Source: Deltaproteobacteria bacterium PRO3 (GTDB lineage Bacteria; UBA10199; DSSB01). Taken from it: DNA of 44,442 nt. Shown here one piece after another: positions 9,019 through 43,248 of this stretch. Location of the stretch: the NCBI GenBank assembly GCA_030263375.1, contig SZOV01000015.1, positions 1 to 44,442 of the forward strand. Reading direction: 5' to 3'. The position numbers and the translations under genes were made by a program. The notes below the pieces were generated by a model. The model ran no database searches. It was not told the DNA's origin and was given only the letters and a program-made list of their open reading frames with translations. Every line of letters starts with the position of its first letter. Within the stretch, counting starts at the first letter, position 1.

Positions 9019-9033
9019 CACGCATTTTCCGCC

Positions 9034-9065: not shown

Positions 9066-9088
9066 TACGTCGGCAATCGCTCCGATGG

Positions 9089-10612: not shown

Positions 10613-10708
10613 AAAAAAACCTCGATCGTTCGTCAAAAGACGGTTGTTGTCAGTATGCCGTCAAGACTCCCGGGGAGTCCAGTTTTCGCTGCCATCTGCT
10701 ATTCGGCG

Positions 10709-10830: not shown

Positions 10831-10840
10831 AACTATTATT

Positions 10841-10870
10841 AATAGGCAAAAGAACCGCTCACGGTTTTGG
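10841..10870 (-). terminator. Weak terminator after pssA
   Basis: On the minus strand just after the pssA stop, AACCG-TGAG-CGGTT (10866-10853) forms a short stem, flanked by A-run and T-run (CTTTT). The stem is only 5 bp of strong pairing, extended by A-T pairs, so efficiency is uncertain. Confidence 0.4.
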
Positions 10871-10871
10871 C

Positions 10872-11690: not shown

Positions 11691-11695
11691 TTCGT

Positions 11696-12382: not shown

Positions 12383-12383
12383 A

Positions 12384-12914: not shown

Positions 12915-12916
12915 TT

Positions 12917-14617: not shown

Positions 14618-14645
14618 GCTGTTTTTTGACCTTGTCGAAAAATCC

Positions 14646-14673
14646 TTTATGCCACGGCGGAGAAAGATGTCAA
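14646..14673 (-). promoter_or_regulatory. Candidate promoter of the ilvB operon
   Basis: On the minus strand, consensus TTGACA (14673-14668) and CATAAA (14651-14646) are 16 bp apart. The transcript would begin near 14639, about 20 nt before the ilvB ATG at 14617. The leader is too short for a classical leader-peptide attenuator. The match is by eye. Confidence 0.5.
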
Positions 14674-14724
14674 ATCCGCAAACTCATTCAAGAAAAGCTC
14701 TCTCAAGCCCGCAGCCGGGAATCC

Positions 14725-14943
14725 TTAGCGCAGCTTCTCGAGGATGGCCTCGATCTTGGTTTTTCCCTTGAGTTTCTGAAGCTGAAGGCGCTTTTTTTCG
14801 AGCTTTTCTTCCGTATTGAGGTAAGGTTTTTTGGTTAATTTTTTTAATTTCTGTTCTAATTTCAGATGATTATCCCACAACTCTTTAAGCTCGGGATTAT
14901 ATTTTAAATGCCGCTGCAAGAGCGCCTCGTCGTGTTCGTCCAT
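14725..14943 (-). CDS. YdcH/DUF465 family small coiled-coil protein
   Basis: 72 aa, highly charged and entirely helical. The pattern ELKELWDNHLKLEQKLKKL followed by NTEEKLEKKRLQLQKLKGKT matches the DUF465 (YdcH) family: Leu-x-H near the middle and a Lys-rich KRxxLxxLK helix. The molecular role is not established for the family. It starts 3 nt after tsaB, so it is the last gene of the long rpsB operon. Similar small genes occupy related positions in deltaproteobacterial genomes. Confidence 0.75.
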   Translation of the reverse strand: MDEHDEALLQRHLKYNPELKELWDNHLKLEQKLKKLTKKPYLNTEEKLEKKRLQLQKLKGKTKIEAILEKLR

Positions 14944-14946
14944 CCT

Positions 14947-15639
14947 TCACTCCTTTTGCTTGAGCCGGCGATTTTCGGCCTCGGAGACCCTGAGATAACG
15001 GACCTGCAATTGACTCCCCTCCACCGCCTTCCCTTCCCGGAATTGGCTTAAGGCCAAGCGCCCGACCTCCGCGGCGCTCACCCGCGCCGCCTCCCCGCCT
15101 TCCAATATGCGACCCAGGCCCGCGAAGCGCCCCGGATAAGCCGACAGGGCGTCCCCTAAAAACCATTTTTCGCCGGGGATCTCTCCCAAGTGTTGCAGAA
15201 AGGACTCGATCGGCCAAGCCCGATCCGCAAGGACCTTGACGGGGGCCTCAGGGACCCCGGCATAGGCACCCGCGTAGACCTCGCCGCAGCGGGCGTCCAG
15301 GCAGGCGATGACCGTCCGCCCCGCCGCCAGCTGCGGCCGGACCAAGGCCAACAGCGTGGAGACGCCGACGACCGGCTTTCCCAGGGCGCGGGCCAGACCC
15401 TTGACCGTGCTGATCCCGATGCGCAGGCCGGTGAAGGATCCCGGTCCGGCGCTGACCGCAAGCAGGTCGAGCTCGGCTAAGCGCCAGCCCAAGGCGTCGA
15501 GGGCGTTTTGGATGGAGGCGATCAGGGTCTCGCTGTGAGAAGGCGGCCGCGCCTCGAAATTTTCGCGCAGGCAGCGCTCTTCCTCGAGCAGGGCCACGCT
15601 TTGGCTTGCGCCCGAGGTGTCGAGGGCCAGGATCCGCAT
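14947..15639 (-). CDS. tsaB: tRNA threonylcarbamoyladenosine biosynthesis protein TsaB
   Basis: 230 aa. It is an actin-like ATPase-fold protein that pairs with TsaD and TsaE to make the t6A37 modification of ANN-decoding tRNAs. MRILALDTSGASQSVALLEE is the N-terminal phosphate-1 strand, and AGPGSFTGLRIGIS is the diagnostic TsaB motif, with STVKGLARALGKPVVGVSTL after it. The start overlaps the rseP stop by one base (TGATG). TsaD and TsaE are not in this window. Confidence 0.94.
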   Translation of the reverse strand: MRILALDTSGASQSVALLEEERCLRENFEARPPSHSETLIASIQNALDALGWRLAELDLLAVSAGPGSFTGLRIGISTVKGLARALGKPVVGVSTLLALVRPQLAAGRTVIACLDARCGEVYAGAYAGVPEAPVKVLADRAWPIESFLQHLGEIPGEKWFLGDALSAYPGRFAGLGRILEGGEAARVSAAEVGRLALSQFREGKAVEGSQLQVRYLRVSEAENRRLKQKE

Positions 15640-17000
15640 CAGAACCAGCCCTTCACCTTGTCGAAGATGTCCTTGAGCCCCCAGACGGCGTCGATGTCGT
15701 TGACGGTGACGACCACCATCAGGGTGAGCAGCATGAACATCCCGATCTGCTGAGCAATGAGACGCTTGCGCATCGAGAGCGCCTTGCCCGCGATCCCCTC
15801 GTAGACCATGAACAACAAATGGCCGCCGTCCAGGACGGGGATCGGCAAGAGGTTCAAAACCCCGAGTTGGATGCTGAGGAAGGCCAGGAGGTAGAGAAAA
15901 TTCCCCAGCCCCTGCTGCGCGGCCTTGGCCGAGATCTGGGCGATGCGCACCGGACCGCCGAGTTCTTTATAAGAGGCCTTCAGCGTGACCAGGTCTTTGA
16001 GGACCTTGAAGGTCATGCCGAAGAGCATGAGGTTTTCCTTCACGCCCTTTTGGAAGGCCTCGCCCAGGCCATATTGCCGCTTCACGAAGTTGTCGGGGTT
16101 GGACGCCTTGGCCACGCCGATCACGTACTTGTTGAGGTTGGGGTTGAAGACCGGGCTGATCTTCAATTCGACCTTCTCGCCCGCGCGCTCGACGGTGAAG
16201 CGGCTCTCCTTGCCCTTGGATTGGTTGACCAGGTCGGCCATGGCGTTCCAATCGGCCACCGGCGTCCCGTTGATCGCGACGACCTTGTCGCCCGCCTTCA
16301 TCCCCGCGGCGTGGGCGGGCGAGTCCGGCGTGAAGGCGCCGACCAGCGGGTCGACGTCGACGAAGAAGACCGGCTCGAGGCCCAAGTAGCCTCCCATGCC
16401 GCCCTCCAGGGCCTGCAGGGTCGCGGCCTTCTCCAAGGTCTGGTCGCCGCGCTTCAGCTGCAGCCTCACCTCGGTGCCCGCGGGCTTGCTGATCTCGCGC
16501 ATCACCTGGTCCCAGCTGGCGGCCGGCTTGCCGTTGACGGCGAGGATCAGGTCGCCCTTCTCGACCCCGGCCTTGGCGGCGGAGGAATCGACCTGGACGC
16601 CCAGGACCTGCGGGGGCTGGGAGAGGTATTTCGGCTCTTGCCGGCCGATCATGAAGACGATCGGCATGAGGATGAAGGGCAAGAGGAGATTCATGCCCGG
16701 CCCGGCCAGGACGACCTTCATGCGGGTCCACAGCGACTTGCTGCTGAAGGCGCGGGGGTCGTCGAGCGGAACGATCTCGCCTTCTTCGAAGTCCTCCTGC
16801 CCGCTCATCTTGACGTAGCCGCCGAGCGGCAGGAGCGAGAGGCAGTACTCGGTCTCGCCGACCTTGAAGCCGATGTGGGGCCCGAAGCCTAGCGAGAAGC
16901 GCTCGACACGGATACCGCTGAACTTGGCGACCAGGAAATGGCCGAGCTCGTGGATGAAGATCAGGAGGCCGAGGCCGACTATGAAATACAGAATCGTCAT
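15639..17000 (-). CDS. rseP: RIP metalloprotease RseP (site-2 protease)
   Basis: 453 aa inner-membrane protease of the regulated intramembrane proteolysis pathway; in model bacteria it cuts anti-sigma factors and clears signal peptides. HELGH at residues 17-21 lies in the first membrane helix. Two PDZ domains follow in the periplasmic part (SAAKAGVEKGDLILAVNGKP and AHAAGMKAGDKVVAINGTPV). The second active-site motif LNLLPIPVLDGGHLL is in the third quarter, followed by two hydrophobic helices. It is co-transcribed with dxr (31-bp gap) and tsaB (1-base overlap). Confidence 0.96.
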   Translation of the reverse strand: MTILYFIVGLGLLIFIHELGHFLVAKFSGIRVERFSLGFGPHIGFKVGETEYCLSLLPLGGYVKMSGQEDFEEGEIVPLDDPRAFSSKSLWTRMKVVLAGPGMNLLLPFILMPIVFMIGRQEPKYLSQPPQVLGVQVDSSAAKAGVEKGDLILAVNGKPAASWDQVMREISKPAGTEVRLQLKRGDQTLEKAATLQALEGGMGGYLGLEPVFFVDVDPLVGAFTPDSPAHAAGMKAGDKVVAINGTPVADWNAMADLVNQSKGKESRFTVERAGEKVELKISPVFNPNLNKYVIGVAKASNPDNFVKRQYGLGEAFQKGVKENLMLFGMTFKVLKDLVTLKASYKELGGPVRIAQISAKAAQQGLGNFLYLLAFLSIQLGVLNLLPIPVLDGGHLLFMVYEGIAGKALSMRKRLIAQQIGMFMLLTLMVVVTVNDIDAVWGLKDIFDKVKGWF

Positions 17001-17031
17001 AAATTTATAATCCTATCTAATTCTTCTCTTC

Positions 17032-18183
17032 TCAGGCCGCCGCCAGCTCCGAAGCCCGCTGTCGGGCCCACTGGTCGACGGCGACGATCTCCTCGAGGGA
17101 CTTGGGCGTTACGCGCGCGTGGCCCTGCAGGGTCTCTTCCACCACCTTGGGGATCTGCAAAAAGGAGATCTTGCGGTCCAAAAATTGCTGTACCGCCACC
17201 TCGTTGGCGGCGTTGAGCACCGCCGGCATCGTGCCGCCCTCCGCCATCGCCCGCTTGGCCAATTTGAGGCAGGGAAACTTCTCCTCGTCGGGCTGGAAGA
17301 AGGTCAGGCCCGCCAGCTGCGTCAGGTCGAGCGAGGGCAGGTCGTTGGGCAGCCGGTCGGGGTAGCTGAGCGCGTAGGCGATCGGCACCCGCATGTCGGG
17401 CAGGCCCAGCTGGGCCATCACCGAGCTGTCCTGAAACTCGACCATCGAATGGATGATGCTCTGCGGGTGCACGCAGACCGCCAGGGCCTCGGGCGCGACG
17501 TCGAAGAGCCAGCGGGCCTCGATCAGCTCGAGGCCCTTGTTCATCAGGGTGGCCGAGTCGATGGTGATCTTGGCGCCCATCGACCAGTTGGGGTGCTTCA
17601 AGGCCTGCTCGACGGTGATGCTCGCAAATTCCTCTTTGGGCTTGTTGAGAAAAGGCCCTCCGCTGGCCGTCAGGATGAGCCGGCGGATGCGCTTGGGGTC
17701 CTCGCCGTTCAGACACTGGAAGATCGCGGAGTGCTCGCTGTCGACGGGGAAGATCTTGACGCCCCGCTGCCGGGCGGCGGCGTTCATGAATTCGCCGGCC
17801 ACCACCATGGTCTCTTTGTTGGCGAGCGCGATGTCCTTCTTCGCCTGGATCGCGGCGTAGGTGGGCTCGAGGCCGGCGGCGCCGACGATGGCCGACACGA
17901 CCGTCTGGGCCTCTGGATGGGTCGCGACGCGCACCGAGCCCTCGCGGCCCCAAAGAATTTCCGGGGCCTCGGCGCCCAACGCCTCGCGAAGCCGCACGGC
18001 GTCGGCCTCGGCCGTCACCGAAACCAAAGAAGGACTGAATTCGCGAATCTGCTCGAGCACCCGCTCGACGTTGCGTCCGCAGGCCATGGCCACGACTTGA
18101 AGCTGCTGCGGGTTGCGCCGGACCACGTCGAGGGTGGAGGTGCCGATCGAGCCGGTGGAACCCAAAAGGGCGATTTTCTTCAT
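17032..18183 (-). CDS. dxr: 1-deoxy-D-xylulose 5-phosphate reductoisomerase
   Basis: 383 aa, typical length. NADPH-dependent enzyme making 2-C-methyl-D-erythritol 4-phosphate, the committed step of the MEP isoprenoid pathway. The N-terminal nucleotide motif is LLGSTGSIGTSTLDVVRRNP. The middle contains the metal-binding PVDSEHSAIFQCL and LTASGGPF segments, and the substrate loop is HPNWSMGAKITIDSATLMNK. The gene begins directly after the cdsA stop with no gap. Its product feeds UppS, encoded two genes upstream, for undecaprenyl phosphate. Confidence 0.96.
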   Translation of the reverse strand: MKKIALLGSTGSIGTSTLDVVRRNPQQLQVVAMACGRNVERVLEQIREFSPSLVSVTAEADAVRLREALGAEAPEILWGREGSVRVATHPEAQTVVSAIVGAAGLEPTYAAIQAKKDIALANKETMVVAGEFMNAAARQRGVKIFPVDSEHSAIFQCLNGEDPKRIRRLILTASGGPFLNKPKEEFASITVEQALKHPNWSMGAKITIDSATLMNKGLELIEARWLFDVAPEALAVCVHPQSIIHSMVEFQDSSVMAQLGLPDMRVPIAYALSYPDRLPNDLPSLDLTQLAGLTFFQPDEEKFPCLKLAKRAMAEGGTMPAVLNAANEVAVQQFLDRKISFLQIPKVVEETLQGHARVTPKSLEEIVAVDQWARQRASELAAA

Positions 18184-18987
18184 TCAGGATCTCCAGTACG
18201 CCGCATAGTAATAGACGATCGGCGAGGTGAAAAGCAATGCGTCGATCCGGTCGAGCAGTCCGCCGTGGCCGGGGATGAGGTTCCCGCTGTCCTTGACGCC
18301 GACGCTGCGCTTGAGCAGCGACTCGGAGAGATCCCCCAGCGGCCCGATCAACCCCACGCCGACGCCGACGATCAGGCAGTCTTGGATGCGGATCTGGCTC
18401 GAGATGAAGACCCGGCAGGCCAGGGCCCAGAGGACGCTCATGACGATGCCGCCGAGGAGTCCCTCGACGGTCTTCCCCGGCGAGATGTGGGGGGCGAGCT
18501 TGTGCCGCCCGAAGAGGCGTCCGGCGATATAAGCGCCCGTGTCGGCCCCGAAGGTCGAGCCCAGGACCAGGAAGAGCCAGAGCGGGCCGTCGGGAAGGTC
18601 GCGGATCAGACCCAAAAAGGACAGCAGCAGGCCGCAGTAGACCGCCGTCAGGAAGGTGGAGGCCACCTGCCCCAGCACCACCTCGATCGAATGGCGATGC
18701 CAGAGATAGAAGACGAAGCTCGCCATCAGGGCCGCGGGCACCGCGACGACCAGCGTCGCGAAATCGCGGGGTCCGAACATCGCCGCGACCGCAAGGCCCA
18801 AGGCCAATAGCGTCGCGAAGGCCGGCGAGCTGGAGGGATGCGCCGGCAGGATCATACGCGCGCACTCGTGGGCGGCCAGCGCGACGATCGCCGCGATGAC
18901 CGCCTTCAGCGGGACCGCGGGCAGGTAGAGGATCAGCAGGATGACCGCGGCCGCGAGGATGACGCCGGTGATGATTCGTGTCCACAT
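18184..18987 (-). CDS. cdsA: Phosphatidate cytidylyltransferase
   Basis: 267 aa with about eight hydrophobic helices. It makes CDP-diacylglycerol, the substrate of PssA encoded further along the same strand. The family signature is at the C-terminus: LLKRSVGVKDSGNLIPGHGG, then LLDRIDALLF. GADTGAYIAGRLFGRHKLAP is also conserved. It abuts dxr directly and lies 16 bp after uppS. Confidence 0.94.
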   Translation of the reverse strand: MWTRIITGVILAAAVILLILYLPAVPLKAVIAAIVALAAHECARMILPAHPSSSPAFATLLALGLAVAAMFGPRDFATLVVAVPAALMASFVFYLWHRHSIEVVLGQVASTFLTAVYCGLLLSFLGLIRDLPDGPLWLFLVLGSTFGADTGAYIAGRLFGRHKLAPHISPGKTVEGLLGGIVMSVLWALACRVFISSQIRIQDCLIVGVGVGLIGPLGDLSESLLKRSVGVKDSGNLIPGHGGLLDRIDALLFTSPIVYYYAAYWRS

Positions 18988-19003
18988 AGAATCGTCGCTT
19001 TTC

Positions 19004-19735
19004 CTATAAAGTCGCCCGCACCTGCTCGGTGGTGAGGCCGAAGCGTCGCTCGCGGCTTTGGTACTCGCGGATCGCCTCCTCGAGCTCCTGCCGGTTGAAG
19101 TCCGGCCAGAGGGTGTCGGTAAAATACAGCTCGGTGTAGGCCATCTGCCAGAGTAGGAAATTGCTGATGCGGTGCTCGCCGCTGGTGCGGATCAGGAGGT
19201 CGGGGTCGGGCAGCCCCTCGGTGTAAAGCTGACGGTCGAGCTCGTCCTCGCGGATGACGCGGGAGGCGTCGCCCTCGGCCAGGGCGCTGCGAACCATCTG
19301 GTTGACCAGCTCGGTCAGCTCGCTGCGCGAGCTGTAGCTGAGCGCCAGCACCAGGGTCATCTTCTCGCAGTGCCGGGTCTCGGCGATGGTCTTGGTCAAT
19401 TCGCGCAAGACCCCCTCGGGCAGACGGTCGATCTGACCGATCACCCGCAGGCGGATGTCGTTTTTGATCAGCTTGGGGCGCTTCGCCACCAGGAAGTGCT
19501 TCAGTAGGTCCATCAGGCCCAGGACCTCGTCGGAGGGGCGATTCCAGTTTTCTTGGCTGAAGGCGTAGAGGGTGAGGTACTCGATGCCGATCTCGCGGCA
19601 GGCCTCGACGATGCCCTCGACGGTCTCGCTGCCGCGGCGGTGCCCCTCGAGTCGCGGCAGGTCGCGATTCCGGGCCCAACGCCCGTTTCCGTCCATGATG
19701 ATGGCGATGTGCCGTGGGAGCTTGGCTTTATCCAC
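19004..19735 (-). CDS. uppS: Isoprenyl transferase (undecaprenyl diphosphate synthase)
   Basis: 243 aa, normal length. It condenses isopentenyl diphosphate units in cis to form the lipid carrier for peptidoglycan and LPS. HIAIIMDGNGRWARNR holds the catalytic Asp. GHRRGSETVEGI, LTLYAFSQENWNRP and the late DLLIRTSGEHRISNFLLWQ are the other family motifs; RTSGE binds IPP. The start is GTG, directly abutting the frr stop (TGA then GTG), which implies coupling. Confidence 0.95.
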   Translation of the reverse strand: MDKAKLPRHIAIIMDGNGRWARNRDLPRLEGHRRGSETVEGIVEACREIGIEYLTLYAFSQENWNRPSDEVLGLMDLLKHFLVAKRPKLIKNDIRLRVIGQIDRLPEGVLRELTKTIAETRHCEKMTLVLALSYSSRSELTELVNQMVRSALAEGDASRVIREDELDRQLYTEGLPDPDLLIRTSGEHRISNFLLWQMAYTELYFTDTLWPDFNRQELEEAIREYQSRERRFGLTTEQVRATL

Positions 19736-31405: not shown

Positions 31406-33141
31406 ATTGGACTCGCGGCTTCGACGGATTCCCGGATTTCACGGTTATAGCAAGACAATATGTCCCTTCGCGAGACGAGTCCCAGCACCTTGCGGGACTC
31501 GCCTCCTTCCAGGACCGGCAGATATTCGATATTCTCGTCTCCGATTTTCAGTAACGCTTCCTCGAGGGTGTTTTCGGGCGTGACCGTCAGAACTTCCCGG
31601 GTCATGATATCTCCGACCACGACCACGTCGGCCACCTCTTCTTCGAAAACGACGGCCTGAAAGTCCTGCAAAGACACGATCCCCACCAAACCACCGTCCG
31701 GACCGAGAACGGGATAAGCATACTGTTTCGAATTGGGCAAGAGAGCGAGAAGCTCCCTCAGTCTGGTCTGAGGCGATACCGACAAAAAATCAGCCCTGAG
31801 AATTTCGCGAACCCGCTTCCTGCGCAGTACGTTGCGTCTTTCACCGTAGAAAACGCCCTTTTTGATCAACGAACGAGTGAAAACCGAACCCTTCATGACG
31901 ATTTGGACGAGGATGGTGCTGATCGCGCAGGTGATCATCAACGGCAGGACAATGCTGTATTTCCCGCTCAGCTCGAATATAAGGATCACCGAGGTCAAAG
32001 GGGCCCCCGTCACCCCGGCCATGAGGGCTCCCATGCCAACCAAGGCGTAACTACCGGCCGTCGCGGTCGATTCTGGGAATAGCCGATGGGCTCCGTATCC
32101 GAAGGTATTACCGATCATCGCGCCTATGAAGAGGCAAGGAGCAAAAACGCCTCCCGTCCCGCCCGAGCCCAGGGTTAGGGAAGTGGCGACCATTTTCAAT
32201 ATTCCTAAGGCGGCGATGAAATACCAAAGGTATTGCCCTTCGAAAACGGCGTTGACCGTGGGATAATTGCTGAACCCGTGAAGTTGGGGAAAATAATAGG
32301 CGATCAAGGCCAGAAGAAAGCCCCCCAGCATGGGCTTGAGGAAACTGGGCATCTTTAAGCGCGAAAAACCTTCTTCGAAGCGCTCCAGACAAATCATGAA
32401 CAGCATGCAGGCACCGGCGATCAAGAGAGCCATGGCCATATAGATGGGAATTTCCCAGGCGCTCTTGAGGTGAAAGGAGAAGGCCCCGCTGGTTAGGGCC
32501 GGAAACCCCGACACCTCCTGGAGGAGAGCGTTTGAGACGACGGTGGCAATGACCGAGGAAATCACGATCGGCGTGAAATGACGGACGGCTACGTCGCCGT
32601 GAAAAATCTCTAGAGCGAAGATCGCGCCGGTAATCGGAGCGTTAAAGGTAGCCGCGATCCCGCCCGCGGCCCCGCAACTAATGATCGTCTTGGCCAATTC
32701 TCCTTTCTTTTTCAGCAGGCTGCTTACAGCCGATCCTACCGTGGCTCCGATGTGGGCGATAGGCCCCTCCCTGCCGGAAGATCCCCCGCTTCCGATGGTC
32801 AACGCGGAAGTCAGGGCGCGCAACAATATGACTCTTTTCGGAAGCGGTTTCCCGAATTGCATCGCTTCCATGACGTCGGGCACCCCATGGGAAGCCCCTT
32901 CCTTCTTGAGAAGGAACTTCGCCGCCAAGCCGACAAGCAAACCTCCCAATGCCGGCATCAGGATTCTTCGCCACCCCGGCGCCAAAACCACCGCGGTGAA
33001 AGGGTTTTCGACTCCGCCGAAAAAACCATCCTGCATGAACCCGATCAGCCAGCGGTAAAACACCGCCGCCAGGCCGGACAAGACACCCACGAACAGACCC
33101 AAACCGATCAGTTGCGGACCTTGTTCCTTGAGCGCCTTCAT
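31402..33141 (-). CDS. ClC-family chloride channel/transporter with CBS domains
   Basis: 579 aa. About ten or more membrane helices. The anion selectivity loops are visible: TIGSGGSSGREGPIAHIGAT, with the gating Glu in REGP, and GSGGTGGVFAPCLFIGAM. Two CBS domains follow the membrane part (about 440-570). It belongs to the bacterial ClC subgroup with cytosolic CBS domains; channel versus H+/Cl- exchange cannot be told. Sampled lines are about 52-55% GC against about 68% in glmS, and codon choice is more varied, yet the gene overlaps glmS and the helicase gene by 4 bp at both ends. This suggests a foreign gene fitted into the operon. Confidence 0.93.
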   Translation of the reverse strand: MKALKEQGPQLIGLGLFVGVLSGLAAVFYRWLIGFMQDGFFGGVENPFTAVVLAPGWRRILMPALGGLLVGLAAKFLLKKEGASHGVPDVMEAMQFGKPLPKRVILLRALTSALTIGSGGSSGREGPIAHIGATVGSAVSSLLKKKGELAKTIISCGAAGGIAATFNAPITGAIFALEIFHGDVAVRHFTPIVISSVIATVVSNALLQEVSGFPALTSGAFSFHLKSAWEIPIYMAMALLIAGACMLFMICLERFEEGFSRLKMPSFLKPMLGGFLLALIAYYFPQLHGFSNYPTVNAVFEGQYLWYFIAALGILKMVATSLTLGSGGTGGVFAPCLFIGAMIGNTFGYGAHRLFPESTATAGSYALVGMGALMAGVTGAPLTSVILIFELSGKYSIVLPLMITCAISTILVQIVMKGSVFTRSLIKKGVFYGERRNVLRRKRVREILRADFLSVSPQTRLRELLALLPNSKQYAYPVLGPDGGLVGIVSLQDFQAVVFEEEVADVVVVGDIMTREVLTVTPENTLEEALLKIGDENIEYLPVLEGGESRKVLGLVSRRDILSCYNREIRESVEAASPI

Positions 33142-34976
33142 TCCACCGTCACGCTCTTAGCCAGGTTGCGGGGTTGGTCGACGTCGTGACCGCGATGGTC
33201 GGCAATATAGTAAGCGAAGAGCTGCAGGGGCACGGCGCTGAGAATGGGGGTCAATAGCGGATGGGCCTTGGGCAGATAGATCACGTCGCCGGTCAGCTCG
33301 CGGATCTTCTTGTCGCCCTCGGTCGCCAGGGCGAGCACCGCGGCCTGGCGCGAGAGGACCTCTTGGATGTTGGAGGCCATCTTCTCGTAGTACTCGTCTT
33401 TCAGGGCGATCGCGACCACCGGCGAGCCGTGGTCGATCAAGGCGATGGGCCCATGCTTGAGCTCGCCCGCCGGATAGCCCTCGGCGTGGAGGTAGGAGAT
33501 CTCCTTGAGCTTCAAGGCGCCTTCCAGGGCAATCGGAAACTGGGGCCCGCGGCCGATGAAGAGACAGTCGTCGCTGTGGGCGTACTTCAGGGCCAGCTCG
33601 CGGATGGCCTCGGACTGCTTGAGCACCTCCTCGATCTTGCCGGGCACCTCGAGGAGCTCGTGCAGGAAGGCCTCGGCGTCCTCCTTCTTAAAGGTCCCCT
33701 TCTTCCGCCCCAAGAGCAGGCCCACCAGGTGCAGGGTGACGATCTGGGCGGTGAAGGTCTTGGTCGCGGCCACGCCGATCTCGGGGCCGGTGTAGGTGTA
33801 GAGTACCGCGTCGCTCTCCCGGGCGATCGAGCTGTCGACGACGTTGGTGATGGCCAGGACCTTGGCCCCCTTGGCCTTGGCGTTGCGGATGGCGGTGAGG
33901 GTGTCGGCGGTCTCGCCCGACTGGCTGATCGCCACCACCAGGCTGCGCTTGTCGAGGATGGGGTCGCGGTAGCGGAACTCGCTGGCCTGCTCGACCATCA
34001 CCAGGGTCTTCAGGTCGCGCTCGAGGAAATACTTGCCGACCAGGGCCGCGTGCCAGCTGGTGCCGCAGGCGACCAGGTAGATCTTGTCGACTTTTTCGAT
34101 CTCGGCCTTCGACTTGAACAGCTCGGCCGCCCCGTCGCCGTAGACGTTGGACTTCACCAGGTCGAGATGCCCGCGCAGGGTGTCGGCCAGGGCCCGGGGC
34201 TGCTCGAAGATCTCTTTGAGCATGAAGTGCTTGTAGCCGGCCTTCTCGGCCATCGCGAGGGTCCAGGTGATCGTCTTGGCCTCGCGGCGCACCGCCTTGC
34301 CGCTTAGGTCTTGGACCTGGACGCCCTTGCGGTCGAGGACGGCGACCTCGCCGTCCTCGAGGAAGACGACGCGCTTCGTGTAGGGCAACAGCGCGGGTAC
34401 GTCGCTGGCGACGTAATTCTCGCCCTCGCCCAAGCCCAGGACCAGCGGGCTGCCGCTGCGGGCGGCGTAGAGGGTCCCCGGCTCGCCCTCGCAGAGCATC
34501 GCCACCGCGAAGGAGCCGCGCAGCCGATGGAGGGCCTTGCGGAAGGCCTGGACCGTCGGCGTACGAGGACCCAGCTCTTCGTCGATGAGGTGAGCGATGA
34601 TCTCGGTGTCGGTCTCGGAGGAGAAGTGGTGCCCCTTCTTGAGCAGGGCCTCGCGGAGCTCGGTGAAATTTTCGATGATGCCGTTGTGGACGACCGTGAC
34701 CTTCCCGTAGCGGTGCGGGTGGGCGTTGGCCTCGCTGGGCCGGCCGTGGGTCGCCCAGCGCGTGTGGCCGATGCCGAGGCTGCCCTCGGGGCCCTTCGCC
34801 TGGACCAGCTCGCGAAGCTTGGCGAGCTTGCCCTGGGAACGCAGGATCTGCAGGCGGTCGCCGGCGACTACGGCGATGCCCGCCGAGTCGTAGCCGCGGT
34901 ACTCGAGGCGCGAGAGGCCGTCGAGCAGGATCTCCGCCGCGGGTTTACCTCCGATGTATCCGACGATGCCGCACAT
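33138..34976 (-). CDS. glmS: Glutamine-fructose-6-phosphate aminotransferase (isomerizing)
   Basis: 612 aa, standard length. It makes glucosamine 6-phosphate for cell wall and LPS synthesis. After Met removal the N-terminal Cys nucleophile is in MCGIVGYIGG. The glutaminase domain carries RLEYRGYDSAGIAVV and GIGHTRWATHGRP. Two SIS sugar-phosphate domains follow: VACGTSWHAALVGKYFLE, SQSGETADTLTAIRNAK and GRGPQFPIALEGALKLKEIS. It ends NLAKSVTVE. It is 11 bp downstream of glmU, so two steps of UDP-GlcNAc synthesis are linked. No glmS ribozyme is seen upstream. Confidence 0.96.
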   Translation of the reverse strand: MCGIVGYIGGKPAAEILLDGLSRLEYRGYDSAGIAVVAGDRLQILRSQGKLAKLRELVQAKGPEGSLGIGHTRWATHGRPSEANAHPHRYGKVTVVHNGIIENFTELREALLKKGHHFSSETDTEIIAHLIDEELGPRTPTVQAFRKALHRLRGSFAVAMLCEGEPGTLYAARSGSPLVLGLGEGENYVASDVPALLPYTKRVVFLEDGEVAVLDRKGVQVQDLSGKAVRREAKTITWTLAMAEKAGYKHFMLKEIFEQPRALADTLRGHLDLVKSNVYGDGAAELFKSKAEIEKVDKIYLVACGTSWHAALVGKYFLERDLKTLVMVEQASEFRYRDPILDKRSLVVAISQSGETADTLTAIRNAKAKGAKVLAITNVVDSSIARESDAVLYTYTGPEIGVAATKTFTAQIVTLHLVGLLLGRKKGTFKKEDAEAFLHELLEVPGKIEEVLKQSEAIRELALKYAHSDDCLFIGRGPQFPIALEGALKLKEISYLHAEGYPAGELKHGPIALIDHGSPVVAIALKDEYYEKMASNIQEVLSRQAAVLALATEGDKKIRELTGDVIYLPKAHPLLTPILSAVPLQLFAYYIADHRGHDVDQPRNLAKSVTVE

Positions 34977-34987: not shown

Positions 34988-36361
34988 CTAATCCTTCCGG
35001 AACTTCTTCTTATACCCCTGAATGTTCTTCTGCGGAACCCGCGAAATCGCCAGGGCCCCCGGCGGGACGTCCCGCGTCACCGTGGTGCCCGCGCCAACGT
35101 AGGCACCCTTCCCCACCTTCACGGGCGCCACCAGCTGGGTGTCGCTTCCGATGAAAACCCCGTCGGCCAAAACCGTCTGGAATTTGTTCTTCCCGTCGTA
35201 ATTGCAAGTGATGGTCCCGGCGCCCACGTTGACGCCCTTCCCGATCACCGCGTCGCCCAGGTAGCTGAGGTGGTTGGCCTTGCTGCCCTTTCCCAGCCGC
35301 GTCTTTTTTAATTCGACGAAGTTGCCGACGTGGGCCTCGGCGTCGATCAAGCTGCCGGGGCGCACCCGCGCGTAGGGCCCGACCACCGCCCCCGCCTTGA
35401 CTTGGCAGTCCTCGAGATGGGTGTAGGCCTTCAAGGTCACGCCGTCGCCCACCGTCGCGTCGATCAGGACGCAGCCCGGTCCCACCACGCAGCCCTTGCC
35501 CAGGCGCGTGTTGCCGATCAGATGCACCCCGGCCGAAAGAAAACTGTCCTCGCCGATCTTGACGCCCGCGTCCACGTAGACAGCGTCGGGGTCCTGCATG
35601 CCGACGCCGTTCTCGAGGTGGGCACCGACCAGCTCTTGGTTGCGTATCTTTTGGAGATAGGCGAGCTCGCCGCGGGTATTGCCTCGCAGGATCTCGGCGC
35701 CGTCGGAGACCGAGACGCTATGCACGGGAATCCCCTGCCGGGCCGCGCAACCGACGACGTCAGTCAGGTAATATTCCTTCTTCACAGGATCCGGCCGGAT
35801 CTGCGCCAGGGCCTTGCGCAAAAAGCCCGCCTCGGCGCAGTAGATGCCCGCGTTGATCTCGTTGATCTGGCGCTCCTCGGGGCTCGCGTTCTTCTCCTCG
35901 ACGATTCCGTAAATGCGCCCCTCGCCGTCGCGCAGGATACGCCCGTAGCCGAAGGGATTGGCGACCACCGAGGTGACCAACGAGAGCGGCCGCGCCGCGC
36001 CCAGGCGCAACAGGCGCTTGAGCGTCTCGGGCCGCAGCAGCGGGACGTCGCCGCTCAAGATGAGGACGTGGCCGGAGAAATTTCCCAGGGCCTTGAGCCC
36101 GACTTGGACGGCGTGGGCGGTCCCGCGCCGCTCTTTCTGATGAGCAAAGACCAGCCCCTTGCGGCCCCGCAGCCGCGCCTCGACCTTGTCGCGGTCGTTG
36201 CCGAGGACGACGGCGATCTTCCGCGGCTGAACCGATTGCGCGGTGTCGAGGACGTAATCGATGAGCGGCCGGCCGCAGAGGGGGTGCAGGACCTTGGTGA
36301 GCCGGGACTTGAGCCGGGTGGAATTTCCCGCCGCGAGCACGATGACCGAGAGACCCTTCAT
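34988..36361 (-). CDS. glmU: Bifunctional UDP-GlcNAc pyrophosphorylase / glucosamine-1-phosphate acetyltransferase
   Basis: 457 aa, normal length. The N-terminal uridylyltransferase domain (about 1-230) begins IVLAAGNSTRLKSRLTKVLH. The usual motif is LAAGxGTRMxSxxPKVLH, so the second Gly is Ser and the Pro is Thr here. GTAHAVQVGL and ILSGDVPLL follow; the latter binds metal. The C-terminal left-handed beta helix (about 250-457) has hexapeptide repeats and VELKKTRLGKGSKANHLSYL, the acetyltransferase site. It makes UDP-GlcNAc from GlmS-derived precursor. No clear SD is visible. Confidence 0.94.
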   Translation of the reverse strand: MKGLSVIVLAAGNSTRLKSRLTKVLHPLCGRPLIDYVLDTAQSVQPRKIAVVLGNDRDKVEARLRGRKGLVFAHQKERRGTAHAVQVGLKALGNFSGHVLILSGDVPLLRPETLKRLLRLGAARPLSLVTSVVANPFGYGRILRDGEGRIYGIVEEKNASPEERQINEINAGIYCAEAGFLRKALAQIRPDPVKKEYYLTDVVGCAARQGIPVHSVSVSDGAEILRGNTRGELAYLQKIRNQELVGAHLENGVGMQDPDAVYVDAGVKIGEDSFLSAGVHLIGNTRLGKGCVVGPGCVLIDATVGDGVTLKAYTHLEDCQVKAGAVVGPYARVRPGSLIDAEAHVGNFVELKKTRLGKGSKANHLSYLGDAVIGKGVNVGAGTITCNYDGKNKFQTVLADGVFIGSDTQLVAPVKVGKGAYVGAGTTVTRDVPPGALAISRVPQKNIQGYKKKFRKD

Positions 36362-36401: not shown

Positions 36402-37148
36402 CTAAGCCTTCGGCAGGCCCAGCTCATAGAAGGGATCGGTGATCTCGTCTTCCTGGCGGAAGTCCTCGACCGGCGACAGGGAGATCAGGTCCTGGATCTC
36501 CTCGCGGCTGAGCAGGGCCGGCGCCTCCGGCTTGACCGCTGCGGGTTCCTCCAAGCGTGGCTCCGAGACAGCGACCGGAAACGGCACAGGCGACGAAGGC
36601 AGGATCGGCGGCTTCGCCAAGGTCTTTTGAAACTCCTCCCAAGCGGTGAAGCGCCATCCGCCCGCGGCCTCGGCCCGTCCATGGAAGAGGCTCACCCGCA
36701 CGCCGTTCAAATAGCTCAGGAGATAGCGGACGTCGGGATCGATCTCGAGGGCGAGGATCCAGACCTTCATCAGGAGGGAGCGATTTTCCAAGACCTGGGG
36801 AAAGAGATGGGGCCACAGCGCCCGGTTGCGTTGGATCCAGTCGTAGTCCGGGAGAAGCTTGGAGACGGTCTCGGCGTCACAGCGCCGCTTCACCCAAAGA
36901 AATACCAGCTCGCCGGAGGGATGCAGGGCCACCCAGTCGACGCACCCTTGACCCTCGCGGATCGGGAAGTCCCGGTCCACCGCCTCGAGACCGCGCTCCA
37001 ATTTGGACAAACAGGCCGGAACCGCCTCGCGCAGGGCCTCCAGCTCGTCGCGGCGGCCGCGCACGACCTGAAAGGTCTTCTTCAGCGCCTTCTTGGGCCG
37101 CTTCAACATCTTGGAGACCGGTTCGCGCTGCCAAAATTTCTTACTCAT
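36402..37148 (-). CDS. Hypothetical protein with degenerate PD-(D/E)xK nuclease-like core
   Basis: 248 aa, not recognised as a named family. Residues 65-110 resemble the RecB/NucS-type nuclease core: GCVDWVALHPSGELVFLWVK, then a Leu-rich segment and DYDWIQRN. Asp71 and Lys87 are in place, but the position of the catalytic Glu (E in ExK) is Trp85, so cleavage activity is unlikely. The N-terminus is strongly basic (KMLKRPKKALKKTF), suggesting nucleic acid or phospholipid contact. The C-terminal 60 residues are Pro/Glu-rich. The start overlaps the MinD-like gene by 8 bp, so the two products may act together. Confidence 0.5.
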   Translation of the reverse strand: MSKKFWQREPVSKMLKRPKKALKKTFQVVRGRRDELEALREAVPACLSKLERGLEAVDRDFPIREGQGCVDWVALHPSGELVFLWVKRRCDAETVSKLLPDYDWIQRNRALWPHLFPQVLENRSLLMKVWILALEIDPDVRYLLSYLNGVRVSLFHGRAEAAGGWRFTAWEEFQKTLAKPPILPSSPVPFPVAVSEPRLEEPAAVKPEAPALLSREEIQDLISLSPVEDFRQEDEITDPFYELGLPKA

Positions 37149-38112
37149 GGGCCTGCCGCTCGAGCTTCGCGAAGTAGGAAGGAATGTCCGCGTCGCGGCA
37201 CTGCCGTTTCTCCCAGGCCCGGTAGCGCACGAAGAGCTTGGCCTCGATGCCGCGCAGGCAGGCGGTGACGAAGGCCTTGGGGTGCGAGAGCACGGCCGGC
37301 CTTTGGATCGCGATGGAGTGCAGCAGGTAGCGGTCGAAGGGGATGTAGCCCAGGCTGTTGAGCCTCACGCCCGAGAGGTGCTTGGCGACGACTTGCCGGA
37401 GCTTTTTCATCGATTGCTGAAATTCGGTCTCGTCGCGCACCCGGTTCATCACGACGTTTAGCTCGCGGGCCGGCGCGCCGTCGTCCTGGGCGAGGCACTT
37501 GACCAGACCGTAGGCGTCGATCAAGGCGGTAACCTCGGGGTTGGTGACGACGATACGGTCGTGGGCGGGCTTCATCCATTGCAGATTGGCCGGGGAAATC
37601 CCCGCGGCCAAGTCGACCAGGACCATGTCGTAGTCCGGCTCGAGGCAGGCGAGCTCGCGGGCCAGGATGGCGATCTCGTAGGGCTCGAGGTTGGAAAGCC
37701 GGCTCGAGCCCATCCCGCCGGGCAAAAGCTTCACCCCGCCGGGGCCGGGCAGGATCACCTCGCGGAGGCCCTTGCGCCCCGCCAAAACGTCGCCGATGTC
37801 GCCCTGCGGCTCGAGGCCGAGCAAGAGGTGGTCGTTGGCCAGGCCGAAGTCGGCGTCGACGATCAAGACGCGCAGGCCGCGCTGGGCCAGGCTGATCGCA
37901 AGGTTGGTGGTGAAAGTGGTCTTGCCGGTGCCGCCCTTCCCGCTCGCGATGGCGAGCACTTGGCATTGGGCGGGGGGCATCGAGGCCTCGGGGCGCTCGG
38001 GGGCGTCTCCGAATTCGAAGGGAACGGCGACGGTTTCATCCGTCAGGGCGAAGGCGGGCTCCCCCGAGCTTAGACCGGCCTCCGCGACAAGATCGATGGA
38101 CCTTGAACTCAA
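37141..38112 (-). CDS. MinD/FlhG-like P-loop ATPase
   Basis: 323 aa from a TTG start (GAGG 5 nt upstream). An ATG at 37980, also with GAGG nearby, would give a 279-aa protein starting just before the P-loop; the choice is open. The deviant Walker A is ASGKGGTGKTTFTTNLAISL, with KGGTGKTT at 59-66 in the long form. Then VDADFGLANDHLLLGL and MVLVDLAAGISP (switch regions) match the FlhG/MinD subgroup of spatial regulators. The C-terminal ~45 residues include a basic/aromatic stretch (AKLFVRYRAWEKRQC) and may serve as membrane-targeting helix. There are no flagellar genes nearby, so a FlhG role is unproven. Confidence 0.8.
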   Translation of the reverse strand: MSSRSIDLVAEAGLSSGEPAFALTDETVAVPFEFGDAPERPEASMPPAQCQVLAIASGKGGTGKTTFTTNLAISLAQRGLRVLIVDADFGLANDHLLLGLEPQGDIGDVLAGRKGLREVILPGPGGVKLLPGGMGSSRLSNLEPYEIAILARELACLEPDYDMVLVDLAAGISPANLQWMKPAHDRIVVTNPEVTALIDAYGLVKCLAQDDGAPARELNVVMNRVRDETEFQQSMKKLRQVVAKHLSGVRLNSLGYIPFDRYLLHSIAIQRPAVLSHPKAFVTACLRGIEAKLFVRYRAWEKRQCRDADIPSYFAKLERQAHE

Positions 38113-38241: not shown

Positions 38242-38907
38242 ATGCGAAGATTCCCGCATTGGCTGCTGTTCGCCGGCCTGCTCGTCGCCTGCGCCGCGCC
38301 CAAGTCGATGCCCGCCGACATCGACCGACTGAAAAGCCCGTCCGAGCTGGGCGAGGCCTCGCGCCGGGCCTACCTGGCCGCCCGCGACGCCGCCGCGAAA
38401 TCCGACAAGCTCAAGCGCGCCCACGAGGGCATCGTATACGCCGACAAGTGCCTGAAGGCCGATCCCCAGGCCGCCGACTGCCTCTACTTCCACGCCCTCA
38501 ACACCGGCGTCTACATCAAGAACCACATCCCCAACTACCAGAAGGGCCTAAAAAAGATGGTCGCGAATTGCGAGGCCTTGAACCAAATTCGACCGGATTT
38601 CGAACACGCGGGCTGCTACCGCATCCTAGGCAACATCTTCGCCCAGGCCCCCTCCTTTTCGCTCAACCCCAAGAATATCACCCAAGACCTGGACCGCTCG
38701 GTGGGCTACCTGCGGGAGGCCGTGAAAATTTCCCCGGATTATCCGCTCAATCGCCTCTTTTTGGCCCGCAGCCTCGAGCAATCCGGCGACACCGAAGGGG
38801 CCCGAGCCGAGCTGAAGGCCTTCGACGCCCTCCCTAAGGACGGCCTCGCCCAGGACTATCCCGACTGGAAGAAAGAGCGGGATTCCCTGGCACAGAAGTT
38901 GCTGTAG
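38242..38907 (+). CDS. Lipoprotein, TRAP-transporter TatT-component-like helical repeat protein
   Basis: 221 aa. The signal peptide ends in lipobox LVAC with Cys17 followed by AAPKS, so it is a lipoprotein. The mature part is helical: [79 protein letters not shown]. The [13 protein letters not shown] and [13 protein letters not shown] blocks are typical, as far as I recall, of TatT (T-component of tetratricopeptide-associated TRAP systems). No TRAP transporter genes are adjacent, so its partner is elsewhere or its role differs. Confidence 0.7.
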
Positions 38908-41490: not shown

Positions 41491-43248
41491 ATGAGCGATC
41501 CAGCCACCAAGCTACCCACTTACAATATTTTTGAAATCCGCAGCACGACCGCGGAATGTCTCGAGGCCCCGGCCGACCCCGCGAAGGATCCTTGCAAGAT
41601 CCAGGCGGAAGAAGTGGAGAGCGGGCTCAGCATCTCGCTGGAGCGCAAGAACGGGACATTCCAGCCGGCCTCCGCCGATGCCGCCAAGCTGCTCAAGGTA
41701 TATCCGAACTTCCGCGCCCCCGCCGCCGAACTGGCGGAATACTTGGCGGTCAAGGCGGAGTTCTCCAAGGTCTTCGGCGACGAGCAGAATCCCTCCGACA
41801 TCTTCAAAAAGATCAGCATCGTCTTCGAGGGCAAGGAAGTCCCCGACAAAAATCGGGCGATCTTCAATTGGTTCAACATCACCACCAACTTCATCTCGCA
41901 CGGCCAGCTGGAGCCGAAGCACGCCAAGATGAAGAGCCTGCAGGAGACCACGATCAAGGTCGGAGCCTTCGCCTTCGCCGATCCGGTCTTGGGGACGATG
42001 GTCGAGAAGGTCCTGAAGGGGCTCAAGGACAACAGCAAGCTGTCCTCGGAGAGCCGAAAGCGGGTCGAGTGGCTGCTGGGCATCTACGCGACGCGCGAAA
42101 AATTTTGGGCGGCGATGAAGCCGGCGATGGACAAGTCGCAGAGCGTCAGCGACCAGCTGAAGCCGCGCAGCGTCGACTTGCTGATCGTCCTCTTCGCCAA
42201 CCACGTCCTGGCGGAGAAGGGTTATGCGAGCTATCTTTATTCCGACGAGGTCAAGGGCGCGGCGAAGGTCTACCACGACATCTTTTCCAAGATCGATCCC
42301 AACTACAACGCCGCGAAGAACTATTACGCCTTCATGAGGGACTCGGTCTCCAGCCTGCGGAGCGTGGACCTCCCCGAGGCGGCGAAGAAAGAGCTGCTGC
42401 TGCGCATCGCCTTCCTCGAAAACGAATACGGCAAGGCGGCCCAAAAGGAGATGACGGATCTCCTCTCGGCCCAACCCGCCGAGTCCGCCTTCCGCGAGTA
42501 CCTCGAGATCAAGTACGGCGACACGCCGGCCCGCGCCGGCGCCCTGAAGATCATCCTCGCCGGCCTGACCTTCAAGTCCGGCGAGGAAGGCACCGGACAT
42601 TCCTTCGCGATGGAGAAGATCTCCCGCGAGCTGCACCTGTGGGTCGACGGCAAGGCCGGGGACCAGCGCAAGGAGGCCCTGGAGGCGATCAATCACCTCT
42701 TGAAGGCCCTCTTCGAGAAGGACGGCAAGATCGAGGTCTTTTGGGACAAGCAGGTCCAGACGACCGACAACTTCTACAAGACGGGCAATTTCTCGATCCT
42801 GAGCAACAACAAGAAGGCCTTGGAGGATCTGATCGTCTGGGCGCGTAATGCCGCCACCGAGGAGAAGCTGAAGCTGTCCCCGGATAACACGCCGCACGTC
42901 GCCCTGCGCAAATGGACCTTGGGCACCGAGCTCGGGATCGGCGTGGCGGGGCTGGGCGTCGGCACCGCCTTGGCCTTCGCGCCCATCAAGGACCAGAACG
43001 GTCAATACTTCACGCAAGGAAGCTCGATCATCTTGGGCTCCTCGGCCCTCGGCGCGGCGGGAGGGAATCTCCTGTCCTACAAGCTCAACGTCACCAAGAA
43101 CGCCTGGCTCTTCGACGCCGGCGGCGCCTTGGTCGGCGGTCTGCTGGGCGGGCTGATCTACGGCCTGGTCACCCCGCCGCCTCCGGCCTTCGGCGGCGGA
43201 AAGACCGATCCCGGTCAGAGGTTCCCGGTCGACGGCTACGGGCCTTGA
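41491..43248 (+). CDS. Unrecognised family protein, second of two tandem paralogues (glycine-zipper membrane C-terminus)
   Basis: 585 aa, about half identical by eye to the preceding protein along its whole length. Shared blocks include DPCKIQAEEVESGLSISLER, FISHGQLEPKHAKMKSLQE, ESRKRVEWLLGIYA, KPAMDKSQSVSDQLKPRS, DPNYNAAKNYYAFM, REYLEIKYGDTPARAGALK and FWDKQVQTTDNFYKTGN. The C-terminus has three Gly-rich hydrophobic segments (about 478-498, 511-530, 539-560; GGALVGGLLGGLIYG) and ends DPGQRFPVDGYGP. There is no signal peptide. The two copies have diverged while keeping membrane tail and terminal motif, which argues that both are functional. A 281-bp structured spacer precedes it. Function unknown. 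Confidence 0.8.
   Translation: MSDPATKLPTYNIFEIRSTTAECLEAPADPAKDPCKIQAEEVESGLSISLERKNGTFQPASADAAKLLKVYPNFRAPAAELAEYLAVKAEFSKVFGDEQNPSDIFKKISIVFEGKEVPDKNRAIFNWFNITTNFISHGQLEPKHAKMKSLQETTIKVGAFAFADPVLGTMVEKVLKGLKDNSKLSSESRKRVEWLLGIYATREKFWAAMKPAMDKSQSVSDQLKPRSVDLLIVLFANHVLAEKGYASYLYSDEVKGAAKVYHDIFSKIDPNYNAAKNYYAFMRDSVSSLRSVDLPEAAKKELLLRIAFLENEYGKAAQKEMTDLLSAQPAESAFREYLEIKYGDTPARAGALKIILAGLTFKSGEEGTGHSFAMEKISRELHLWVDGKAGDQRKEALEAINHLLKALFEKDGKIEVFWDKQVQTTDNFYKTGNFSILSNNKKALEDLIVWARNAATEEKLKLSPDNTPHVALRKWTLGTELGIGVAGLGVGTALAFAPIKDQNGQYFTQGSSIILGSSALGAAGGNLLSYKLNVTKNAWLFDAGGALVGGLLGGLIYGLVTPPPPAFGGGKTDPGQRFPVDGYGP

What the first reader, a model, noticed from the sequence alone, without database searches (positions are those of the whole stretch)
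36402..38112. MinD/FlhG-like ATPase coupled to a degenerate nuclease-like protein
The two genes overlap by 8 bp. The partner keeps Asp71 and Lys87 of a PD-(D/E)xK core but has Trp85 at the Glu position, plus a basic N-terminus. A pseudonuclease working with a spatial-regulator ATPase, without flagellar or division genes nearby, could be a new positioning or DNA-tethering pair.
Basis: partly seen in the sequence, partly recalled or inferred. Interest (0 to 1): 0.5.

Follow-up and report, generated by a model that had tools for sequence, protein, structure and literature searches.

The report
Positioning-type ATPase with dead-nuclease partner
A gene pair in an uncultured bacterium joins a motor-like ATPase, of the kind that positions things inside bacterial cells, to a protein built like a DNA-repair nuclease whose cutting site has decayed; related cassettes in other bacteria add a chromosome-partition-type ATPase, which suggests an undescribed cell-positioning system.

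Summary
ATPase (37141-38112, -) and partner (36402-37148, -) overlap by 8 bp. Models of two divergent partners both match the NucS/EndoMS nuclease domain best (Z 10.9, 13.1). The catalytic Glu is missing in 15 of 15 partners, the Lys in 12 of 15; selection is purifying. In the window's phylum 9 of 46 genomes carry the ATPase, all 9 with the partner beside it. Only 1 of these 9 has flagellar rod genes, so this is not an ordinary flagellar FlhG.

New here: (1) all 15 partners share a C-terminal helical motif after a disordered linker; in the window's phylum it resembles the EIDAL motif of FliM, whose N-terminus binds FlhG. (2) In a second phylum (5 of 8 genomes) and in G179 the cassette is Soj-like ParA (with a glycogen-recognition domain), MinD-like protein, partner. 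(3) MinD-like proteins with a ParA neighbour begin with a ParB-type LGRG-like peptide (8 of 8; 0 of 7 without).

Best reading: a ParA/MinD positioning module whose adaptor is a dead NucS-fold protein. Binding, localisation and cargo are untested. New variant of a known kind; interest 0.6.

The parts
37141..38112 (-). MinD/FlhG-type ATPase, 323 aa (TTG start)
   Evidence: ORF; best solved relative FleN 5j1j E 5.6e-43; NCBIfam MinD models below cut-off; place in quick tree
38008..38025 (-). conserved N-terminal VPFEFG of the ATPase, before the ATPase core
   Evidence: close variants in the window's family, G007 and G010; only VPYPVE in G028; not in G033 or G041
37918..37944 (-). deviant Walker A, SGKGGTGKT
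   Evidence: invariant in A2 apart from the last residue, Ser in G028
37159..37182 (-). conserved C-terminal PSYFAKLE of the ATPase, role unknown
   Evidence: alignment A2, Ser and Leu invariant in 7 rows
37141..37148 (-). 8-bp overlap of the two reading frames
   Evidence: in the 15 cassettes with a MinD-like gene the partner follows on the same strand, from 11 bp overlap to 85 bp gap (G004), some starts assumed
36402..37148 (-). partner: pseudonuclease of NucS fold, 248 aa
   Evidence: ORF; structure; homologues; dN/dS
37050..37148 (-). basic N-terminal region of the partner (net charge +10 in first 30 residues)
   Evidence: not conserved across the family
36615..37058 (-). pseudonuclease core, residues 31-178
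   Evidence: pLDDT 78-93 by blocks of ten for residues 31-170, 56 for 171-180; 2vld_B Z 10.9, rmsd 2.2 over 107
36888..36938 (-). dead active site, Asp71-Trp85-Lys87
   Evidence: column counts over 15 partners
36519..36614 (-). linker, residues 179-210, predicted disordered
   Evidence: pLDDT below 50
36480..36512 (-). C-terminal helical motif LSREEIQDLIS, residues 213-223
   Evidence: motif in 15 of 15 partners and in the last 60 residues of 0 of 694 other ORFs; isolated helix in both models
34988..36361 (-). glmU, next gene downstream (context)
   Evidence: TIGR01173 E 1.2e-169; follows the pair in 4 of 4 family members that have the pair
33138..34976 (-). glmS (context)
   Evidence: TIGR01135

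Best explanation
The two genes encode a ParA/MinD-type positioning module. The ATPase (MinD/FlhG type) would dimerise on ATP and cycle between a cell surface (membrane or nucleoid) and the cytosol. The partner is its dedicated adaptor: a NucS-type nuclease fold that has lost catalysis and now serves as a binding platform for cargo or nucleic acid, tethered by a flexible linker to a C-terminal helix that docks on the ATPase, much as the FliM N-terminus, which holds the EIDAL motif, docks on FlhG. In other lineages a Soj-like ParA joins, and the MinD-like protein carries a ParB-type LGRG peptide that would bind and stimulate it. Shown here: gene pair, co-conservation, predicted NucS fold, family-wide loss of the catalytic Glu, the conserved C-terminal motif, the ParA plus LGRG cassette elsewhere, purifying selection. 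Inferred: complex formation, which element docks on which ATPase, ATPase cycling, positioning, and the cargo (unknown in the window's organism).
For: Adjacent ATPase and partner in 9 of 9 genomes of the phylum that have the ATPase. NucS-domain fold in two divergent partners with Glu lost in 15 of 15 and Lys in 12 of 15. C-terminal motif in 15 of 15, in the last 60 residues of 0 of 694 other ORFs. Cassette with Soj-like ParA in G028, G033, in 5 of 8 genomes of a second phylum and in G179. LGRG-like N-terminus on the MinD-like protein in 8 of 8 such cassettes, 0 of 7 without a ParA gene beside them (G137 read by eye). The H. pylori ParB peptide MAKNKVLGRG binds ParA in a crystal (PMC11229316, passages); the ParB N-terminal ParA-binding motif is described in PMC12462528 (passages). 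Partners of ParA/MinD ATPases are called extremely diverse and not always identified (PMC10241942, passages). FlhG interacts with FliM via the FliM N-terminus (PMC12826062, passages), where the EIDAL motif lies that binds CheY (PMC6946799, passages). dN/dS 0.08-0.20 for the partner.
Against: No complex was predicted or measured. The C-terminal motif may be a generic helix start: the profile also picked an archaeal proteasome alpha C-terminus (E 0.32), and in the second phylum Arg or Gln stands where EIDAL has Ile. That FlhG contacts EIDAL itself is recalled, and no FliM with a textbook motif was fetched for comparison. Known adaptors are described as binding through a charged N-terminus (PMC10241942); only 7 of 15 partners have a clearly basic one. 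G010 has a second, orphan partner gene beside gyrA, and the relatives in G130 and G406 have no ATPase gene beside them. G179's partner scores little better (E 4.6e-5) than G146 (E 1.5e-4), which I read as an ordinary nuclease, so its membership rests mainly on gene order; its motif is poor (LSEAERKTL). 37 of 46 genomes of the phylum lack the ATPase (23 of 29 near-complete ones), so the pair is dispensable there.
Confidence: 0.5

Rival explanations
1. A transcription-control pair: like FleN/FlhG acting on FleQ/FlrA, the MinD-like protein restrains an NtrC-type activator, with the dead nuclease as a co-regulator or DNA-binding subunit.
For: The closest solved relatives are FleN. An NtrC-type response regulator (read by eye, not scanned) stands beside the cassette in G387, G388 and G389 and beside the partner-like gene of G130. 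FlhG/FleN modulation of FlrA/FleQ: PMC12826062 (passages).
Against: No such regulator was seen next to the pair in the window, G007, G010, G028, G041 or the part of G033 that was printed (one search's print was cut); single-domain response regulators lie about 2 kb away in G007 and 5 kb away in G010. G386 has none within about 1.3 kb, and G137's contig starts too near to tell. The ParA plus LGRG cassette is not explained by it.
Confidence: 0.18
2. The module controls number or place of the organism's non-flagellar, flagellum-derived export apparatus (FliG-, FliM-, FliF/YscJ-, FliP- and FliR-like genes on contig C12).
For: The cluster exists in the genome; all 9 pair genomes have a FliM-like gene. 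The FliM-like protein of G000 and the flagellar FliM of G010 show no clear EIDAL motif, so the partner could supply one in trans.
Against: 41 of 46 genomes have FliM-like genes and only 9 the pair, so the link is not specific; the FliM-like gene is on another contig than the pair in 9 of 9. Of eight FliM-like N-termini printed, three have a loosely similar stretch of their own (VSEAEI, LTDEET, VTEEEI), so a motif in trans may not be needed. G010 is truly flagellated.
Confidence: 0.1
3. The C-terminal motif binds the replication clamp, as the C-terminus of NucS is recalled to do, and the pair acts at replication forks.
For: NucS kinship; the motif follows a flexible linker and ends in FF or FL in several members; ssb is a near neighbour in the window's family.
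Against: The recalled bacterial clamp motif (Gln, then Leu-Phe) is not matched; ssb is divergent and was found near the pair only in this one family; the idea gives no role to the ATPase.
Confidence: 0.07
4. The partner is still a nuclease in the window's genus (Asp71 and Lys87 kept) with an altered active site.
For: Asp and Lys are both present in 3 of 15 partners (G000, G001, G002).
Against: Glu replaced by Trp, Ser, Ala, Lys, His, Phe, Leu or Gln in 15 of 15; Lys lost in 12 of 15, including family member G004.
Confidence: 0.05

Closest known systems
FlhG/FleN (flagellar MinD-like ATPase)
   Same: ATPase fold and sequence (FleN 5j1j E 5.6e-43); an EIDAL-like helix on the partner in the window's phylum
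   Different: In a quick tree the pair ATPases group with two second copies (SH-aLRT 99) and, as sisters, two non-flagellar sequences, apart from the other 77 of 79 fetched loci, most of which have flagellar neighbours (FlhF beside 62 and FlhA beside 70 of 80); no rod genes in 8 of 9 pair genomes
NucS/EndoMS mismatch endonuclease, C-terminal nuclease domain
   Same: Predicted fold (Z 10.9 and 13.1); Asp of the core kept in 13 of 14 readable partners
   Different: Glu lost in 15 of 15, Lys in 12 of 15; the match covers only the C-terminal half of NucS; paired with an ATPase; extra linker and C-terminal helix
ParABS partition system
   Same: In related cassettes: Soj-like ParA plus a protein with a ParB-type LGRG-like N-terminus
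   Different: The LGRG peptide sits on a MinD-like protein, not on a ParB; no parS sought; absent from the window's own pair
McdAB and other ParA/MinD cargo-positioning pairs
   Same: ATPase plus cognate partner arrangement (PMC10241942, passages)
   Different: Partner is a dead nuclease; cargo unknown; charged N-terminal peptide not conserved

Membership tests
ParA/MinD ATPase superfamily | deviant Walker A (KGGxGKT) and ParA/MinD domain | tested here: met
   CbiA, ParA and AAA_31 Pfam models above cut-off; KGGTGK invariant in A2
MinD (TIGR01968/TIGR01969) | score over the curated cut-off | tested here: not met
   105.9 vs 212.9 bits; 127.5 vs 201.75 bits
FlhG/FleN | flagellar gene context and FlhF in the genome | tested here: not met
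   no rod protein in G000; FlhF model gives only matches below cut-off in 12 of 12 genomes (the cut-off also misses the flhF-like gene of G010's flagellar operon, so it is imperfect); no flagellar gene beside the pair
FlhG/FleN | phylogenetic place among FlhG sequences | tested here: inconclusive
   quick, unfinished tree with long branches; root unsure
FlhG/MinD | C-terminal membrane-targeting helix | not tested
   conserved PSYFAKLE noted, no membrane test made
PD-(D/E)xK fold | alpha-beta core of the fold | tested here: met
   models and matches
NucS/EndoMS | catalytic Asp, Glu, Lys | tested here: not met
   Glu in 0 of 15, Lys in 3 of 15
NucS/EndoMS | curated family score | tested here: not met
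   13.3 vs 24 bits Pfam NucS_C; 14.3 vs 252 bits NCBIfam; 1 of 15 partners touches the Pfam model at E<=1
ParABS / ParB-like adaptor | N-terminal LGRG ParA-binding peptide | tested here: not met
   absent from both window proteins; present in MinD-like proteins of 8 of 8 ParA-bearing cassettes
ParA/MinD cargo-positioning pair | partner binds and stimulates the ATPase, cargo is mispositioned without it | not testable with these tools
   needs biochemistry and microscopy

The most novel reading that the evidence does not exclude
A tripartite intracellular partition system not described before: Soj-like ParA, a MinD-like protein turned into a ParB-like adaptor (in one phylum itself a pseudo-ATPase without Walker A), and a pseudonuclease. 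It may partition a storage or surface cargo rather than DNA: the ParA carries a glycogen-recognition domain (AMPK1_CBM) in 6 of 6 cassettes of the second phylum and G179, and a carbohydrate phosphorylase gene is the convergent neighbour of the cassette in G028 and G033. That would make glycogen granules a partitioned cargo.
Probability: 0.15. Interest if true: 0.85.

Novelty: new variant of a known kind. Interest (0 to 1): 0.6.

Why it matters
ParA/MinD ATPases position genetic and protein cargos, and the partner proteins that link them to cargo are extremely diverse and not always identified (PMC10241942, passages). This is a whole family of such candidate partners with a recognisable origin, a dead DNA-repair nuclease, and with short motifs that make the ATPase-adaptor contacts directly testable. 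It also gives a case where a MinD-like ATPase seems to have become an adaptor of another ParA.

Tried and rejected
Flagellar FlhG: set aside on context. G010 is flagellated and its flhF-like gene is followed by a sigma factor gene instead of flhG; whether the pair ATPase does FlhG's work there was left open.

Defence or phage origin: no PADLOC model matched the partner at E 1 and only a weak PHROG of unknown function (E 0.03); no plasmid record matched the partner at E 0.01. G146, the weakest hit, is a small protein with an intact IEIKRD motif beside a McrB-like AAA gene (the neighbour read by eye): I read it as a true NucS-like nuclease and did not count it as a partner. The 15-row counts also leave out G130, G179 and G406, found later; by eye's alignments none of these three keeps the Glu.

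Pseudogene: rejected, dN/dS 0.08-0.20 (dS is above 1 in five of the six pairs, so only G000-G002, 0.08, is unsaturated) and long-range conservation.

Solved-structure search by sequence found no real relative of the partner. No ORF of those 80 loci matched the partner profile (best E 0.63). L062, a possible sister ATPase, lies at a contig end, so its downstream gene is unknown. The absence counts in the phylum include incomplete genomes.

The tree is the quick one; the careful search did not finish and was not resumed. ParA rows were cut for it (three to the first 265 residues). Long branches make the place of the ParA and pseudo-ATPase groups unreliable.

Papers: I saw listings only in the novelty searches, and no listed paper describes this pair or a ParA/MinD system with a NucS-like protein or glycogen cargo: 2 of 2 papers listed; 5 of 5; 8 of 50; 10 of 4,285. 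The library lacks most subscription journals. Blagotinsek 2020 and Schuhmacher 2015 (FlhG with FliM/FliY) are recalled; I did not see them.

Full report
Observation. The two reading frames lie as stated and share 8 bp. The ATPase matches the CbiA/ParA Pfam models and is closest in sequence, among solved proteins, to FleN (E 5.6e-43), but scores far below the curated MinD cut-offs. The partner has no family assignment; the signals are sub-threshold matches to NucS, and none of worth in the PDB by sequence.

Fold. AlphaFold2 on an 11-row alignment gave a confident core (pLDDT 78-93 by blocks of ten for residues 31-170), a disordered linker (179-210) and an isolated helix (215-224). Foldseek puts Pyrococcus NucS first (E 4.2e-5); VIA-align gives Z 10.9, rmsd 2.2 over 107 residues, and the list below it is mostly nucleases. 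A second model, of the divergent partner of G033 (19-21% identical to the window's), has pLDDT 81-96 over residues 31-160 and NucS at Z 13.1, rmsd 2.1 over 107.

Catalysis. In the 15-row alignment the Glu position holds W in 6, S in 2, H in 2 and A, K, F, L, Q in one each: Glu in 0 of 15. Lys is kept in 3 of 15. Asp is kept in 13 of 14 readable rows; the fifteenth reads X. The family profile also picks G146 (E 1.5e-4), a small protein with an intact IEIKRD, which ties the family to active NucS-like nucleases by sequence too. Partner dN/dS between four members of the window's family is 0.08-0.20 over six pairs, with dS above 1 in five of them: it is a maintained protein.

Co-conservation. The window's phylum and class hold the same 46 genomes. 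The ATPase clade is found in 9 of 46, the partner in 8 of 46 at first and in 9 with the larger alignment; the ninth, G041, has a run of N inside the gene. In all nine the partner follows the ATPase directly. G010 has a further orphan partner beside gyrA. G028 and G033 have a second, more distant ATPase without a recognisable partner. No ORF in the 80 loci brought in by the ATPase scan, one of them the second copy of G028, matched the partner profile. In the window's family 4 of 7 genomes have the pair (three others are 73-83% complete), and the order ssb - TPR gene (divergent) - ATPase - partner - glmU is kept in 4 of 4.

Not flagellar. FliM-like genes occur in 41 of 46 genomes, but rod proteins in only 4 of 46, of which one (G010) has the pair. 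In the window's genome the FliM-like gene lies in a cluster with FliG-, FliF/YscJ-, FliP- and FliR-like genes and a sigma factor, which I read as a non-flagellar export apparatus. FlhF is nowhere over its cut-off in 12 genomes examined, though the model also misses the full-length flhF-like gene of G010's flagellar operon. In a quick tree the nine pair ATPases and the two second copies form one group (SH-aLRT 99) with two non-flagellar sequences as sisters, apart from the flagellar FlhG sequences.

C-terminal motif. All 15 partners carry [LI][ST]x[ED]Exxx[FL][LFMI][SGAE] in their last 60 residues; among 705 mechanically picked ORFs of the longer loci 11 had it there, all partner genes, so 0 of 694 others. 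The pattern was written after seeing the partners, so this measures specificity, not discovery odds. E217 of the window is one of only two invariant columns, the other being the start Met. G007 reads LSREEIDAFLS, very like the recalled FliM sequence LSQxEIDALL. FlhG interacts with FliM via its N-terminus (PMC12826062, passages), where the CheY-binding EIDAL motif lies (PMC6946799, passages). In the second phylum the motif is the very end of the protein and has Arg or Gln in place of Ile. Three of eight FliM-like proteins of the phylum have a loosely similar N-terminal stretch.

Wider cassette. A search of 385 genomes found one outsider, G137. In its phylum 5 of 8 genomes have the partner. In all five the order is Soj-like ParA - MinD-like protein - partner. 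These five MinD-like proteins have lost the Walker A motif; the three scanned (L149, L150, L152) match the CbiA model below its cut-off. A last search (386 genomes, 9 with a match) added G179, outside both phyla, with the same order and a half-kept Walker A (SGKGVRGKT), G130 and G406 without an adjacent ATPase, and G146. In the window's own phylum G028 and G033 have a Soj-like ParA gene after the partner. Every MinD-like protein with such a ParA neighbour starts with an LGRG-like peptide: 7 by pattern (among them LGRSL in G028 and LARSL in G033) plus G137 (LGRGMEEIS) by eye, 8 of 8; of the 7 pairs without a ParA gene beside them none does (G010's contig ends about 400 bases after the partner, so a ParA gene there cannot be excluded). 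In 738 ORFs the pattern hit 6, all cassette or partner-like genes. The correlation counts related genomes and only a few lineages. The peptide MAKNKVLGRG of H. pylori ParB binds ParA in a crystal, with Lys3, Val6, Leu7 and Arg9 as main contacts (PMC11229316, passages).

Possible cargo. The ParA carries AMPK1_CBM (glycogen-recognition site) above cut-off in 6 of 6 cassettes of the second phylum and G179; the ParA of G028 and G033 does not show it, but a carbohydrate phosphorylase gene is the convergent neighbour there. In G028 an L,D-transpeptidase gene precedes the ATPase, and glmU follows the pair in the window's family. These hints point to polysaccharide or wall, weakly, and differ by lineage.

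Mechanism. The best-supported reading is a ParA/MinD positioning module whose adaptor is a dead NucS-fold protein. The contacts are inferred from motifs. The strongest rival is transcription control in the manner of FleN and FleQ, because an NtrC-type regulator gene flanks the cassette in three second-phylum genomes and the partner-like gene of G130.

Verdict. The pair belongs to a known kind (ParA/MinD ATPase with cognate adaptor) but with an adaptor family, a MinD-turned-adaptor and a three-part cassette that I did not find among the papers listed by the searches.

Noticed in passing
L046 (G000:C12:22000-41999), about 7536-19709: Flagellum-derived export cluster with FliR-, FliP-, FliM-, FliG-like and YscJ/FliF-like genes and a sigma factor, in a genome with no rod protein match; FliM-like genes in 41 of 46 genomes of the phylum but rod proteins in only 4.
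   Followed up: partly
L142, L149-L152, L164: Soj-like ParA proteins with a C-terminal AMPK1_CBM (glycogen-recognition) domain in 6 of 6 cassettes.
   Followed up: partly
L142:1678-2544, L149:4891-5757, L150:5591-6481, L151:4793-5677, L152:6044-6925: MinD-like proteins without Walker A (pseudo-ATPases) that begin with a ParB-type LGRG peptide.
   Followed up: yes
L052 (G010:C10:14000-33000): Flagellar operon of G010 in which the flhF-like gene is followed by a sigma factor gene and no flhG; its FliM shows no clear EIDAL-like N-terminus by eye.
   Followed up: partly
L143:2886-3500 (G010): Orphan second copy of the pseudonuclease partner beside gyrA, without an ATPase gene.
   Followed up: partly
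L162:4762-6519 (G130): Partner-like domain at the start of a 585-aa protein with a long low-complexity tail, beside an NtrC-type response regulator gene.
   Followed up: partly
L030-L037, N-termini of FliM-like proteins: Several FliM-like proteins of the phylum share a [VL][ST]-x-x-E/H-like stretch near the N-terminus, a possible relic of EIDAL.
   Followed up: no
L041:7998-8264 and L039:4091-4357: Conserved 88-aa protein after the ParA gene in G033 and G028; the G033 copy has no Pfam match.
   Followed up: no
window 38242-38907: TPR gene with a sub-threshold match to sterol transporter BstC (NCBIfam E 6.8e-20, cut-off not met), divergent from the ATPase.
   Followed up: no
window 9035-10891, 16997-18985, 41491-43248: Three long ORFs (618, 662, 585 aa) without any Pfam match at E 1e-5; some may be shadow frames.
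   Followed up: no
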